64,000 nucleotides of DNA from Thozetella sp. PMI_491 (taxonomy: Eukaryota > Ascomycota > Sordariomycetes > Chaetosphaeriales > Chaetosphaeriaceae). The notes below the pieces were generated by a model, which saw only the letters and a program-made list of their open reading frames with translations, did no database searches and had not been told where the DNA came from. The stretch is from assembly GCA_021432635.1 (NCBI GenBank), contig MU270023.1:620001-684000 (forward strand). The letters are read 5' to 3'. The translations under genes were made by a program, and so were the position numbers. Within the stretch, counting starts at the first letter, position 1. Every line of letters begins with the position of its first letter. This document shows, in pieces, positions 52,517 through 58,168 of this stretch.

Positions 52517-54070
52517 TTAGCAAGCAAACATCTTTGTTGTGCTAACATTGACTCTACTCCATCGCCTCCTACTCCACCATGCGCCGATGATAGTCCAAGG
52601 CCAGTACAAGTGGTATAGTGCAAGGGCCGGCAAAGGGTCAAGTATTTCAAAAGTTCCTTCTTTCCAGAAAAGGATATGGGAGACACATGAGAGACATCCT
52701 CGAATCCAATCATGTAGACTAGAATGGCGGAGGGATAGGGATATGCCTGGACCGAGGATCATTGATACAATGTCGTGCCCGATCCAATACCGAGGCCGTG
52801 TATTTGCAGGTGGGTATATGGGCTCACTAGCGATGCCGCTCTGGTAGCGATTAGTGGCGAGCCCCTTTGATCCCTTGCTAAGATTTGATTTGATCGCAGA
52901 TAAGTAGGCTTGCACCATTTCTTCCATTTCTGGACCATTCTGGCCGAAGAGCACGACCGCAGTATGCGCCCGAGGATTACACTCGATGGCATATATACGC
53001 TTCTCCGTTCCATATATGGTCCCGGGTCGGTCTTCAGCCATAAAGTCGAAACTGAGATGACCAGTCATGGATTCTGGGTTCTCGCTGCATGTGATGAACT
53101 GTTTCGTAAAGCTGAGCATGGCACGAGACAGACCTGAAGATGGCGGTAATGCTTTGTAGTGCATGAGAAGCTCAGAGCTCGGGCATGACACGAAGCATTT
53201 CACTTCGCCGCGAACGACAAGAGCATGACTGCAATACTCTTCTCCACCTGCAATAAACTGCTGCAAGATCCATGGGGTAGCCGGAGATATTTCTAGGCGT
53301 GATATATGGTGCTCGGTCTCTAGTTGTGATTCAAAAGGGAGGAGCGTCATGTTGCCCCGGTTGACATCGTCCACGCCGACTGGTTTGAGGATGAACTTCC
53401 GGGAAGGATTGGTGGCGCGCAGCCGGCAGAGTATGGTCGCCAGGTTCTCCCTCGATGTTATGTCATGCGTTTCCGGCACTGGAAGCCCAAATTTCTTGGC
53501 TTCTCTCATAAAAGAGCTCTTGTCGTGCAGGATAGAAGTGATCTTTGGATCCAGCTGTATGCAAGCGCACCGAGTGACTAGCTCGAGAACAGCTTTCGCG
53601 CAAGCATCCTCTACCGCGCTGCCGACTCCAGAGCAAGACACCCAGAGATCAATGCCCTCGCTCTTGACAATCTCAACGAGTCGGCCAACATATCGGTCGC
53701 CGCCAGTCTCTGAATCGGGTGTCGGAAGATGGTAGAAACGCGAAAGAGCCCTGGAGTAGCGGCCCGAGCAGAAAATTCCCGATGACTCCACGTCGGCACC
53801 GATTACGCGATGTCCCGCGATGTGAAAGGCTCGAGCAAGGGTGAGGCCCTTGGCCATACCCACGCCTGTAACTAGAACTGTCCGCCTTGGAGAATCCGGC
53901 CGGGCGTATCGACGCTGGGGCAACATCAAAGACCCTAGTAAATAGGCAAAACATGTTATAGAAAGAGATATGGGTAAGAAAATGACACTAACCATCACAA
54001 GGCTCAACGCCTTCGCGGTATCGTGGAATCGTGCTGTCGCCATGGCAATCCAGCGACATATGTCCTGCAT
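52517..54070 (-). CDS. ATP-grasp carboxylate-amine ligase (MysC-like), mycosporine cluster
   Basis: A single exon of 517 residues. Residues about 22-50 form one strong membrane segment (SLVMVSVIFLPISLSITCFA), suggesting a membrane-anchored enzyme. The ATP-grasp fold follows: KSSFMREAKKFGLPVPETH (small-lobe start), FILKPVGVDDVNRGNM (nucleotide-binding Lys), WILQQFIAGGEEYCSHALVV, and metal-binding GHLSFDFM plus IYAIECNPRAHTAVV (Glu and Asn). In cyanobacterial mycosporine-like amino acid synthesis, MysC is an ATP-grasp enzyme that joins glycine to 4-deoxygadusol. Here the cyclase and methyltransferase of that pathway lie next door, which is the main reason for the assignment. In fungi the amine is probably glutamine- or serine-derived. 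The gene runs the same way as the cyclase gene, 570 bases downstream of it. Confidence 0.8.
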   Translation of the reverse strand: MQDICRWIAMATARFHDTAKALSLVMVSVIFLPISLSITCFAYLLGSLMLPQRRYARPDSPRRTVLVTGVGMAKGLTLARAFHIAGHRVIGADVESSGIFCSGRYSRALSRFYHLPTPDSETGGDRYVGRLVEIVKSEGIDLWVSCSGVGSAVEDACAKAVLELVTRCACIQLDPKITSILHDKSSFMREAKKFGLPVPETHDITSRENLATILCRLRATNPSRKFILKPVGVDDVNRGNMTLLPFESQLETEHHISRLEISPATPWILQQFIAGGEEYCSHALVVRGEVKCFVSCPSSELLMHYKALPPSSGLSRAMLSFTKQFITCSENPESMTGHLSFDFMAEDRPGTIYGTEKRIYAIECNPRAHTAVVLFGQNGPEMEEMVQAYLSAIKSNLSKGSKGLATNRYQSGIASEPIYPPANTRPRYWIGHDIVSMILGPGISLSLRHSSLHDWIRGCLSCVSHILFWKEGTFEILDPLPALALYHLYWPWTIIGAWWSRRRWSRVNVSTTKMFAC

Positions 54071-54640
54071 CCAGGAGCTTTGAAGGAGGGTTAGTCGACA
54101 ATCTTCAACGTCAAGTATATGTCAAAGACGAAACAAAGCGTAAGCTAAAGTCATGACGGCGTTGAATACCTACCAGAGTCAGGTCGCGGACATCAGTATG
54201 GCTTAGCTCCTAGTCCAAGTTTGAGTCAGAATGCATGCAGACGGTACAATGAACCCGTCATCACTCGAGTTTCCACACGCAATACGTCATCACCAAGAAC
54301 CTCACCGATCTCGCTCGGGCCCGGAGCTAAGGGTAAAACAACTATCTGGCGCTGGTTGGAAATCTTCGGACCTTTGCCACGGCCGCTACAGCTTTGCCTC
54401 TGGAAATTTTCGCTGATGATGAGTGGAAGGTGAATTGATAATATCTTTCTAGGGAGCTTTCAAGACTAAAGCCTCGGAAGTTTCAAAGCGTCAATTGCAC
54501 TATTTTCTCTTTTTAAATTATATTTTAACTTTTGAGTTTATTAGACCCGAAGCATAGTGCCATATCCGTTTGTTGTAGAACACTGACTATCAAGCTAGGC
54601 AAAAGCCGCAGCTACTAATTAAAGCATCGTTCCTAATTGA
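54071..54640. other. Promoter region of the ATP-grasp gene
   Basis: This region lies between the ATP-grasp and cyclase genes and holds the ATP-grasp promoter. No coding frame is supported. Confidence 0.5.
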
Positions 54641-56285
54641 CTAGGCAGGAACTTGCAATCCCTTGCAAGTATCTGCCAGATCCTTTGCTAATCCCTTGGA
54701 CAGCTCCTTCGCATTCACAATAACGCCCTCTGCTTTGTCGAACAAGGAGCCGGTGCTACTGGTAGTGTAATTATTTCCGTAGTCCTCTCCGAGGTCGCGG
54801 TTTCCATCCCTGCTCAACCCAAGCTCCAGACCTTGAGGCCGAGAGAAGGCACCAGCCTTAGCAGCGATATTGACGCTCGTAGCCGTGTCATATTCCGTAT
54901 ATCCAGTGTCACTGCTGTCTACATAGGCTTCAACGCCTGCACCCTCGCGGGGATATGTCTTGGCAATGGCCTTGTGAATGCGCAACGCATCCATCAGCTC
55001 CTGAGCTGGCACGTCGTTGAGAAATGTGCAATTCCCAAGGGGGCTTGGCACGGCTAAGCGCAGCAATCCATCTCGCGTCTTCAGGATCGCTTCGGTCCCT
55101 TTGTCGAGTACGCTGTCATCAAAAAGAGGATGGTCGATGGAAAGACCGGCCCGAGAGAAAAGATTAAGAAGGCGGCGGTGGTCGCCATCAGATAGAAGCC
55201 CACGCTGGTGCGCCAGCGTGGCACTAAAGGCCATATCGATAGAGATGGCGTGTCCGTGCCGAAGCGGCGTCTCGGGGATCAGTTCGTGCAGGGGAGACCA
55301 GCTAGGGCCCGTTAGTAAGGCCAACAGTCATTATGCGGCGAGTCTCGACCTACGTGTGGCCATATGCAATCACCCGGTCTAGGCCGATCTCGTGTAGATT
55401 CGGCGACTCCAGCTTCAGCATTTCGTAGATTCCCTCACGATTGATCTTGATCATGTTAGCATTGAAACGATCATATGCGAGATACTAGCACTTAGGCATA
55501 GCACGTACAAAATCCGCAGCATTCCGCACCTCGGCGGGGGCGTTGTCCGCCCTGCCAAACTTCGTTTCGATCAGCTGCTCACAGAACTTGTCTAGTAGGT
55601 CGAACACCTGGAGATGGGCGCACGACGAAATCTTGATCAGTTCTGCGAAGCCGTTGCGAACCTGGGCTGTGGGCAAAGTTCGGAGGAAAGTAAAGTCGAG
55701 GAACGTATGCATAGGCGCGTGATAAGCGCCGAGCCGATTCTTGTAGCGGCCGTAGTTGACAGCAACCTTGATACTGACGCTGGCATCGATCAAGCCAATG
55801 ACGGTAGTAGGAACCCGGATATAGTTGGTGTTGCGGCGGTATGCAGCGCAAGCGAACCCCGCAACATCTGTCACCAAACCACCGCCGACTACCAGGACGG
55901 GCTCCTACAAGCACATGTCAGTATTGTGATGTGCTTTGCCTCTGATCGGACATACCTTGCGGACGATTCCGAAGTCGGTCATGGAATCCGCGATGCTGAG
56001 AAAGGTGTCGATTGACTTTGCCTTTTCTCCAATGGAGGTTTGGTGGACTTTGAGCTCCAGCCCGAAATGGCGGAAGTACTTGTCCATTTTCGCGCCGTAC
56101 AAGCTGTACACATTCTTGTCCATGATAGCTAGCACGCGGCCCCATTTTTTGTAGCAGTCCGCGAGTTGAGTGTGCGAGATGTCGAACACGCCATCCACAA
56201 AGGTGAAGTCGTATTCGATCTTCTCATAGCCCTCCACGTGGAAGCCTTGGGGGGTTGGCTGGACAGTTGCCTTGAGGTCAGACAT
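54641..56285 (-). CDS. Sugar-phosphate cyclase, demethyl-4-deoxygadusol synthase type (MysA-like)
   Basis: Four exons (56285-55956, 55904-55509, 55445-55354, 55301-54641) join in phase to 492 residues. The dehydroquinate-synthase fold is clear: [20 protein letters not shown] (NAD site, about 114-132), [33 protein letters not shown], the metal-binding Glu in [11 protein letters not shown] (Glu198), AYGHTWSPLHEL (His272) and [14 protein letters not shown] (His288/290). The motifs GHTWSP and RHGHA place it with 2-epi-5-epi-valiolone and demethyl-4-deoxygadusol synthases rather than dehydroquinate synthase. The methyltransferase next to it favours the demethyl-4-deoxygadusol type, which cyclises sedoheptulose-7-phosphate. 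About 80 residues of Gly/Asn-rich tail follow the usual end. It shares a promoter region with the methyltransferase gene. Confidence 0.88.
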
Positions 56286-57166
56286 ATTGATTATGGTAGA
56301 ATGTGATTACAGGGTGGACTTGTAACTGGCAAGACTCTGGTATCCAGAGTGCCAGCCGCATCTTATAGCTTGCGGTCTCTGGTTATCGTCGCAACTGTTC
56401 TCTGCCATTTCTGCTAAAAGTCTCGCTCGTCATCACTTCTCGGCTAACTGTACAATGGTGACAAAATGACTAAATGAGTCACCGCACAAGTAGTGACAAG
56501 ATGCTCGATGCACGACTCCCTCACTTCCGTCAAAGTCCATAAAATACGGAGCTAAGCCGGAGGCTTCGGGCCTTCTCGCTTGTCAGCAAGCTCTGAACGG
56601 GCCCAACTCAGCCCGAAGTACACTCCTACAGCTATTGCAGAGATCGAACTGGGGCTGTGTTGGGATCGCATACCCTGGAGAAAGGGCAGGGCAATTCATT
56701 CGCGACAGGATCGAAAATGGCATTCATGGATCGGGAAATGTGAAAATGCATCAGAAAGGCCGAGACCTTTCAAAGCCGGATGTGGCTGCGCTTAGGCTTT
56801 TCGGTTAGCGGCGATGGCGGCGGTAGTTTGCCCGAGGGCCAGATCGGGGCCTAATTGTACCGAACACTCAATCCAGCCTCCTGGGTCGAGAGCTTAAGAT
56901 CATGAGGGATAATGGAGCCAGGGAGTCTATGACCGCTCTGATCGAATGGTGACACATGACTTTTACAAGACGGCTGCGTCAAGCTCTTTTACGCCGGCTG
57001 CCATGGGGCGCCGGCGCAACTCAAAATTTGGGCCCCATCAGCCTATGTGCTCCAACATGTGCTTCTGGCGGATTACAATACAGTATGCTTGACCAGCTTC
57101 CAAGCACACGAAGCAAGCCTTCCCAGCGTTGCCTGTACTCACTGTCTCGAAACTGTGTAGCCTAGT
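56286..57166. promoter_or_regulatory. Bidirectional promoter region of the cyclase and methyltransferase genes
   Basis: The two start codons are 881 bases apart and point away from each other, so this region must hold both promoters. TATA-like or AT-rich elements are not strong. I see no gene inside it. Confidence 0.55.
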
Positions 57167-58168
57167 ATGGCAGAACTAGCCCATCACGCTTTTGAAGGCG
57201 ACGCGTACCAGCCACAGGGGCAAACATATGTCAGTCAACGGGAGAAGCTGATAACATGGATAGATCCATACTAACCAATAGAACATAGTTCGACGATGGA
57301 CGCGAGATTGAGTTGCTGCATTTCATCTTCGGCCATCCTCACCTGGAGCAGATGCGAGGGAATCCAGACAAGGTGCTGGAGGCAATTGACGAGTACGGAG
57401 TCACGGAAAAGTACCTGATGAATATCGGGAAATACAAGTCCAAGACCGTGGTCGACCTGATTCTCAAGGAGAAGCCTGCTGTAATGGTGGAGCTAGGCGG
57501 TTACGTTGGGTACTCGGCCATTGCATTCGGTGCTGCCTTCAGGAAAGCTGGCGGAAAGCAATACTTTAGCCTGGAGATGAACCCTGAGTTTGGAGCAGTG
57601 ATCTCTATGCTTGTTGAATTGGCAGGCCTGAGCAACACCGTCAAAGTCGTGGTTGGTGAGAGCTCGCACTCATTGATGAGGCTACACCAGGAGGGCACGC
57701 TCTCACACATTGACCTACTCTTCCTGGACCACTACAAGCCGGCCTACACGCCTGATCTAAAGCTCTGCGAGGAGCTTGGCCTAGTTGGACCGGGGTCCGT
57801 ATACGCGGCAGACAATGGTCGGTAACTCTCCGCGTCGCTATCCCCTCCAGTAAGCTGATCAGATCACGAGCAGTCATTAAGCCCGGGAACCCTCCTTATC
57901 TCGAATACGTCAGGAGCAGCGTCGCTTCTAAGTGGAGCGTCATTGCCAAATCTAAGGAGGATAAGCCGAGAGGCAGGCCGGACCTCGTATACCAGAGTAA
58001 GCTTGTTGAGGGGTGGGAGCCAAGCGGTGTACCTGTAAGCAACCCTGACATTGAATATCTGGAGAAATATTTGCTAATCATGAGAAGGATGCCCTGGAGA
58101 TTACAAAATGCGTGGGTGTGGACAGTGCTTGTGCCTCGAGAAGCTACAGGTCGGAACTGGTGACGTGA
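57167..58168 (+). CDS. Catechol-type O-methyltransferase (mycosporine 4-deoxygadusol-forming, MysB role)
   Basis: Four exons (57167-57229, 57289-57817, 57874-58034, 58088-58168) join in phase to 277 residues. The sequence FDDGREIELLHFIF leads to KYLMNIGKYKSKTVVDLI. SAM motif I is VMVELGGYVGYSAIAFG, the acidic ribose-binding residue is in YFSLEMNPEF, and the metal-binding motif is LLFLDHYKPAYTPDL. ADNVIKPGNPPYLEYVR crosses the exon 2/3 junction, so this is a class I catechol-O-methyltransferase-like enzyme. In the mycosporine pathway an O-methyltransferase turns demethyl-4-deoxygadusol into 4-deoxygadusol. Its place beside the cyclase supports that role. The first coding exon is only 63 bases, and its start is set by the ATG before the first intron. 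Confidence 0.85.

What the first reader, a model, noticed from the sequence alone, without database searches (positions are those of the whole stretch)
52517..58168. Three-gene mycosporine (UV-sunscreen) biosynthetic cluster in an ascomycete
A demethyl-4-deoxygadusol-synthase-type cyclase, a catechol-type O-methyltransferase and an ATP-grasp ligase sit side by side. These are the three enzyme types (MysA, MysB, MysC) that make 4-deoxygadusol and conjugate it to an amine in cyanobacteria. All three genes are intact after splicing. No MysD/MysE-like second ligase or NRPS is seen, so the product should be a mono-substituted oxo-mycosporine, such as the glutaminol or serinol types known from fungi.
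Basis: partly seen in the sequence, partly recalled or inferred. Interest (0 to 1): 0.88.

Follow-up and report, generated by a model that had tools for sequence, protein, structure and literature searches.

The report
Fungal mycosporine sunscreen gene cluster
Three neighbouring, intact fungal genes should build a small UV-absorbing "sunscreen" molecule from a sugar phosphate, by a pathway already shown to work in a yeast; the one twist is that the middle enzyme looks like a catechol methyltransferase and not like the enzyme used at that step in bacteria.

Summary
The ligase is a MysC homologue (best E 8.5e-58), although Pfam finds nothing in it. One correction: the methyltransferase is not MysB. 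It belongs with catechol O-methyltransferases (100/99; grouping with MysB rejected), motifs kept; MysB is CCoAOMT-like. One MysD query found nothing in the genome and no NRPS condensation domain was found within about 360 kb, so a mono-substituted oxo-mycosporine is likely; the amine is unknown. The same three-gene set, of similar protein sizes and with divergent DDGS and OMT, was deleted and expressed from the yeast Phaffia rhodozyma and makes mycosporine-glutaminol (PMC10057719). Mycosporine-like clusters are also mentioned for ascomycetes. This is a new member of a known kind; chemistry is untested here.

The parts
52517..54070 (-). MysC-type ATP-grasp ligase, 517 aa, single exon, hydrophobic N-terminus
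   Evidence: phmmer finds a MysC ORF in 72 of 72 bacterial mys loci, best E 8.5e-58; 31-35% identity to the 13 MysC aligned; NCBIfam NF005315 187.9 bits, below its cut-off of 406; best 19-residue hydropathy 2.35 at residue 24
54641..56285 (-). 2-desmethyl-4-deoxygadusol synthase (DDGS, MysA-type cyclase), 4 exons, 492 aa
   Evidence: 5TPR 504.8 bits, ValA EEVS 231.6, DHQS chains at most 112.2; in the DDGS clade at 100/98; E198, H272, H288 kept
56286..57166 (.). 881-bp intergenic region between the divergent DDGS and OMT genes, presumably a two-way promoter
   Evidence: from gene models; promoter role inferred, by analogy with IGR1 of Phaffia
57167..58168 (+). COMT-type O-methyltransferase, 4 exons, 277 aa
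   Evidence: PDB 5ZY5 152.4 bits (named probable catechol O-methyltransferase 1), other COMT chains 121-130 bits; COMT clade 100/99 and 100/100 in a rerun without two long rows; grouping with MysB rejected in both

Best explanation
This is a fungal mycosporine core cluster. DDGS (NAD and a metal ion) cyclises sedoheptulose 7-phosphate to 2-desmethyl-4-deoxygadusol. The COMT-type methyltransferase (SAM, Mg) methylates its enediol oxygen, as COMT does for a catechol, to give 4-deoxygadusol. The probably membrane-anchored ATP-grasp ligase then activates the ring with ATP and couples one amine, giving an oxo-mycosporine absorbing near 310 nm; by analogy with Phaffia, glutaminol is the first guess. 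With no second ligase seen, synthesis should stop at the mono-substituted stage. Shown here: family membership, open frames, conserved ligands and linkage. Inferred: cofactors, substrates, membrane anchoring, product, UV role.
For: Cyclase. Of 76 columns that are at least 97% one residue in 72 bacterial DDGS and differ in ValA, the window has the DDGS residue in 60, the ValA residue in 2 and neither in 14. Leaving out the 8 columns covered by the patterns that selected the loci gives 53, 2 and 13 of 68. The stretch that Sepulveda et al. use to name the Phaffia enzyme DDGS matches the window at 23 of 30 positions. Ligase. Methyltransferase. Clustering: 72 of 72 bacterial loci hold the three functions side by side. 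In Phaffia, deletion and S. cerevisiae expression of the three genes prove the pathway to mycosporine-glutaminol (abstract; sections).
Against: No chemistry, expression or RNA data. No other fungal DDGS, OMT or ligase could be fetched for direct comparison. Only one EEVS (ValA) and four DHQS sequences served as outgroups, and the window row has a long branch of 1.53. The methyltransferase does not group with MysB, so its substrate is inferred from the neighbourhood. The ligase is only 31-35% identical to MysC, with insertions, has no Pfam match and scores below the NCBIfam cut-off.
Confidence: 0.9

Rival explanations
1. The cluster makes an imino-type MAA (two substituents), with the second ligase encoded elsewhere in the genome, for example by the D-Ala-D-Ala-ligase-like gene on contig C22.
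For: A protein of unknown function with a Dala_Dala_lig_C match (46.9 bits) is in the genome; a D-Ala-D-Ala-ligase-like, presumably MysD, ORF sits in the flanks of 58 of 72 bacterial mys loci (flanks cut by contig ends in some).
Against: One bacterial MysD query (from L049) finds no match in the genome (no positive-control genome); the C22 protein scores only 14.9 bits against that MysD and is not linked; Sepulveda et al. state that fungal three-gene clusters yield aminocyclohexenones, not MAAs.
Confidence: 0.07
2. The cyclase is an EEVS or DHQS-like enzyme and the cluster makes another C7-cyclitol compound (gadusol-like or valiolone-derived).
For: Same superfamily; NCBIfam models of 3-dehydroquinate synthase match, all below their cut-offs.
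Against: In the DDGS clade at 100/98; 60 of 76 discriminating columns are DDGS, 2 are EEVS; a separate AROM gene covers DHQS.
Confidence: 0.03
3. The genes are a silent remnant that no longer makes a product.
For: No expression data; the cluster is dispensable in Phaffia, being absent from the non-producing strain CBS 6938.
Against: Three open frames with spliceable introns and conserved metal and ATP-grasp motifs.
Confidence: 0.08

Closest known systems
Phaffia rhodozyma MYC cluster (DDGS-OMT-ATPG), PMC10057719 (abstract, introduction, sections 2.1 and 2.3 read)
   Same: Same three functions; protein sizes 477/284/500 aa against 492/277/517 here; DDGS divergent from OMT; no other genes for peptide-binding enzymes in the cluster
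   Different: Gene order is ATPG-DDGS-OMT here, with ATPG on the DDGS strand; in Phaffia it is DDGS-OMT-ATPG with ATPG on the OMT strand. Exons 4/4/1 here against 14/7/6. Whether Phaffia OMT is also COMT-type could not be checked
Cyanobacterial and actinobacterial mysA-mysB-mysC(-mysD)
   Same: Homologous cyclase (56% identity to the 5TPR segment) and ligase (31-35%); hydrophobic N-terminus on the ligase in both
   Different: MysB is CCoAOMT-like, the window enzyme COMT-type. MysD-like ORF in 58 of 72 bacterial loci, not found here
Mycosporine-like clusters reported in Hypoxylaceae, PMC8403587 (passages read)
   Same: Ascomycete clusters assigned to yet unidentified mycosporine-like products
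   Different: Described there among NRPS-like clusters; no condensation domain listed within about 360 kb here
Green-algal mosaic MAA neighbourhood, PMC7826186 (passages read)
   Same: Mosaic pathway with a MysC-related ATP-grasp
   Different: Uses EEVS and MT-Ox where this cluster uses DDGS and a COMT-type enzyme

Membership tests
DDGS (MysA) | groups with DDGS rather than EEVS or DHQS | tested here: met
   one clade with 29 DDGS rows at 100/98; these are 28 of the 72 fetched bacterial sequences plus 5TPR
DDGS (MysA) | sugar phosphate cyclase metal ligands and DDGS-specific active-site residues | tested here: met
   E198, H272, H288, A269 and T348 as in 72 of 72 bacterial DDGS; ValA has D and H at the last two. 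That these are the metal ligands and the published fingerprint sites is recalled; eLife 2015 (passages) says that such sites exist without naming the residues
DDGS (MysA) | converts sedoheptulose 7-phosphate to desmethyl-4-deoxygadusol | not testable with these tools
   needs an enzyme assay
MysC ATP-grasp ligase | homology over most of the length and the ECNPR stretch | tested here: met
   ECNPR in the window and in 71 of 72 bacterial rows. Pfam gives no match at 0.001
MysC ATP-grasp ligase | ATP-grasp fold | not tested
   structure prediction failed and was then switched off
MysB O-methyltransferase | belongs with MysB | tested here: not met
   AU test rejects window OMT + 14 of 72 MysB as one clade: p 5.4e-105, 2.1e-6 with four rows fewer; 15-47 bits against the 72 MysB and 152 against 5ZY5. 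MysB is itself not a firm clade in these trees (54/97, broken)
COMT family | COMT clade with the D-H-x-K and D-N motifs | tested here: met
   DHYK and ADN align with DHWK and ADN of COMT 6I3C; that these residues bind metal and catalyse is recalled
Fungal three-gene mycosporine cluster | DDGS, OMT and ATP-grasp adjacent, without NRPS or MysD | tested here: met
Fungal three-gene mycosporine cluster | produces an oxo-mycosporine | not testable with these tools
   needs expression and LC-MS

The most novel reading that the evidence does not exclude
The fungal pathway is a chimera: the cyclase and ligase descend from the bacterial mysA and mysC, while the middle step was taken over by a resident fungal catechol O-methyltransferase (the closest relative in this genome, on contig C41, is 49% identical), which replaced MysB because the pathway intermediate is a catechol-like enediol.
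Probability: 0.55. Interest if true: 0.4.

Novelty: new member of a known kind. Interest (0 to 1): 0.3.

Why it matters
It gives a compact, intact, intron-poor version of a natural sunscreen pathway in a fungus, and suggests that the methylation step was recruited from a different enzyme family than in bacteria. If general, that could make searches with MysB miss fungal clusters, and it is easy to test.

Tried and rejected
The first scan of bacterial genomes, with the window cyclase alone, found no relative; a two-row alignment with the 5TPR segment worked. A viral-contig scan with that alignment found none. EEVS and DHQS identities were rejected, and a MysB identity. A second ligase: the Dala_Dala_lig_C search gave 9 matches; I read two of them further. 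L084 looks to me like a biotin-dependent carboxylase (by eye, not scanned); L083 is a D-Ala-D-Ala-ligase-like protein with little similarity to one MysD. A glucosyltransferase for a glucoside: none among 16 flank ORFs scanned (13 from the window, 3 from L087), of which 5 had no Pfam match; other flank ORFs were not scanned, and L088 was fetched but not read. Papers: Balskus and Walsh 2010 is not held. Eleven papers were opened, all but PMC10057719 as passages only. In the passages shown, PMC12468165 and PMC11433233 name mycosporines only in reference lists, and PMC9629503, PMC10820743 and PMC4227064 name no mycosporine genes. Searches (two returned no paper; listings only) showed me no paper on a COMT-type replacement of MysB in fungi; the Naganishia paper PMC12204325 lists 'Catechol o-methyltransferase' (IPR002935) under mycosporine synthesis, so the COMT type of fungal OMTs may be known in all but name. 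A term search for 'catechol' or 'methyltransferase' in PMC10057719 found nothing.

Corrected on checking: the count without pattern columns is 53, 2 and 13 of 68 (my first hand count was wrong), and the methyltransferase tree was rerun without two long rows.

Full report
Observation. Reading the region and splicing at GT...AG sites gives three intact proteins: an ATP-grasp protein of 517 aa (54070-52517, minus, no intron), a cyclase of 492 aa (four exons, 56285-54641, minus) and a methyltransferase of 277 aa (four exons, 57167-58168, plus). The order is ATP-grasp, cyclase, methyltransferase, with the last two divergent across 881 bp. The splice sites are predictions.

Cyclase. Against the PDB it scores 504.8 bits to 5TPR (labelled 3-dehydroquinate synthase there; that it is the Anabaena DDGS is recalled), 231.6 to ValA (4P53; named the ValA EEVS structure in PMC4426668) and at most 112.2 to DHQS chains. 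It is 56% identical to the 5TPR segment. With that pair as a query, 72 bacterial loci were fetched, 28 cyanobacterial and 44 actinobacterial. In a tree with 28 of these 72, 5TPR, ValA, three DHQS chains and the host's own AROM, the window lies in the DDGS clade at 100/98; its own branch is long (1.53), and its place among the DDGS, next to cyanobacteria at 86/81, is unsure. Of 76 columns nearly fixed in the 72 bacterial DDGS and different in ValA, the window agrees with DDGS in 60, with ValA in 2 and with neither in 14; without the 8 columns of the patterns that picked the loci, 53, 2 and 13 of 68. E198, H272 and H288, the metal ligands as I recall them, are kept. About 90 residues at its C-terminus go beyond the end of the 5TPR match; Phaffia DDGS, at 477 aa, is also long.

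Ligase. Pfam gives nothing at 0.001 and the PDB nothing convincing. Yet the protein finds the third ORF of the mys operon in 72 of 72 bacterial loci, best E 8.5e-58, shares 31-35% identity with the 13 MysC aligned, out of 72, including the ECNPR stretch, and matches the NCBIfam model NF005315, below its cut-off, which the MysC of L017 exceeds. Both kinds have a strongly hydrophobic N-terminus: best 19-residue mean 2.35 in the window, and 1.6 or more in 70 of the 70 bacterial ORFs that hold the KMTK anchor, two of 72 lacking it. The genome search shows no second copy.

Methyltransferase. The window protein scores 152.4 bits to 5ZY5 (deposited as probable catechol O-methyltransferase 1; that it is the S. 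pombe enzyme is recalled) and 121-130 to 26 other COMT chains, but 22-47 bits to the ten other O-methyltransferase chains listed and 15-47 bits to the 72 MysB. A cyanobacterial MysB shows the reverse: 130 bits to 3CBG and under 40 to the COMT chains listed (60 of 72 rows shown). In a tree of 25 rows (14 of 72 MysB) the window groups with COMT, including two own-genome paralogues, at 100/99, and the AU test rejects joining it with MysB (p 5.4e-105). The program flagged four long rows and two doubtful long-branch joins. Rerun with 21 rows (own C27 and C3 and two PDB rows left out): COMT clade 100/100, MysB grouping rejected at p 2.1e-6, with one long-branch join still flagged. In one search the window pairs with 5ZY5 at 88/74 rather than with the C41 paralogue, so a recent copy of C41 is not indicated; and MysB is itself not a firm clade (54/97, broken). 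DHYK and ADN of the window align with DHWK and ADN of COMT 6I3C. Since desmethyl-4-deoxygadusol carries a catechol-like enediol, a Mg-dependent COMT-type enzyme is a plausible substitute; this is inference.

Surroundings. Left: an ORF with DUF7025 and one with an AAA ATPase domain, which I take for one gene. Right: an alpha/beta hydrolase, an MBOAT-like gene and, beyond the window, a SET-domain ORF and an alpha-L-rhamnosidase. The nearest NRPS condensation domains listed on the contig end at 311 kb, some 360 kb from the cluster at 672-678 kb (77 matches, a lower bound by the tool's own account). One bacterial MysD query finds nothing in the genome, while a MysD-like ORF lies in the flanks of 58 of 72 bacterial loci. 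So the product most likely stops at one substituent.

Known work. In Phaffia rhodozyma the same trio was deleted and expressed in S. cerevisiae: DDGS+OMT gives 4-deoxygadusol and all three give mycosporine-glutaminol (PMC10057719; abstract, introduction, sections 2.1 and 2.3 read). Mycosporine-like clusters are mentioned for ascomycete Hypoxylaceae (PMC8403587, passages), and a catechol O-methyltransferase entry is listed under mycosporine synthesis in the yeast Naganishia friedmannii (PMC12204325, passages). The cluster described here is therefore a further member of a known kind. What it adds is the finding, in one genome, that the methylation enzyme is COMT-type. Whether that is general in fungi could not be tested, because no fungal collection was on hand.

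Verdict. The mycosporine reading is well supported by sequence (0.9); the product's amine is open; interest is modest (0.3).

Noticed in passing
L083:1456-2670 (G000 C22:181138-181725 match): A 404-aa open frame with a D-Ala-D-Ala ligase C-terminal domain (46.9 bits) in a fungal genome, with little similarity to one bacterial MysD. Function unknown.
   Followed up: partly
L078 (G000 C3:232140-232733): Another COMT-type methyltransferase lies about 11 kb from an NRPS condensation domain at C3:220428-221582; it may belong to another biosynthetic cluster.
   Followed up: no
window 54641-54920: The cyclase ends in a C-terminal stretch of about 90 residues beyond the end of the 5TPR match.
   Followed up: no
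L021 and L022: One cyanobacterial MAG contig (CAIVAU010000128.1) carries two mysA-mysB-mysC sets about 60 kb apart in opposite orientation, with the same scores for the methyltransferase and the ligase; a real duplication or an assembly artefact.
   Followed up: no
L010:8131-9509: The MysC homologue in Nostoc sp. CMAA1605 is split over two overlapping frames, suggesting a frameshift or sequencing error.
   Followed up: no
G000 whole genome: 72.3 Mb is large for a filamentous ascomycete (general knowledge), and the condensation-domain search lists 77 matches.
   Followed up: no
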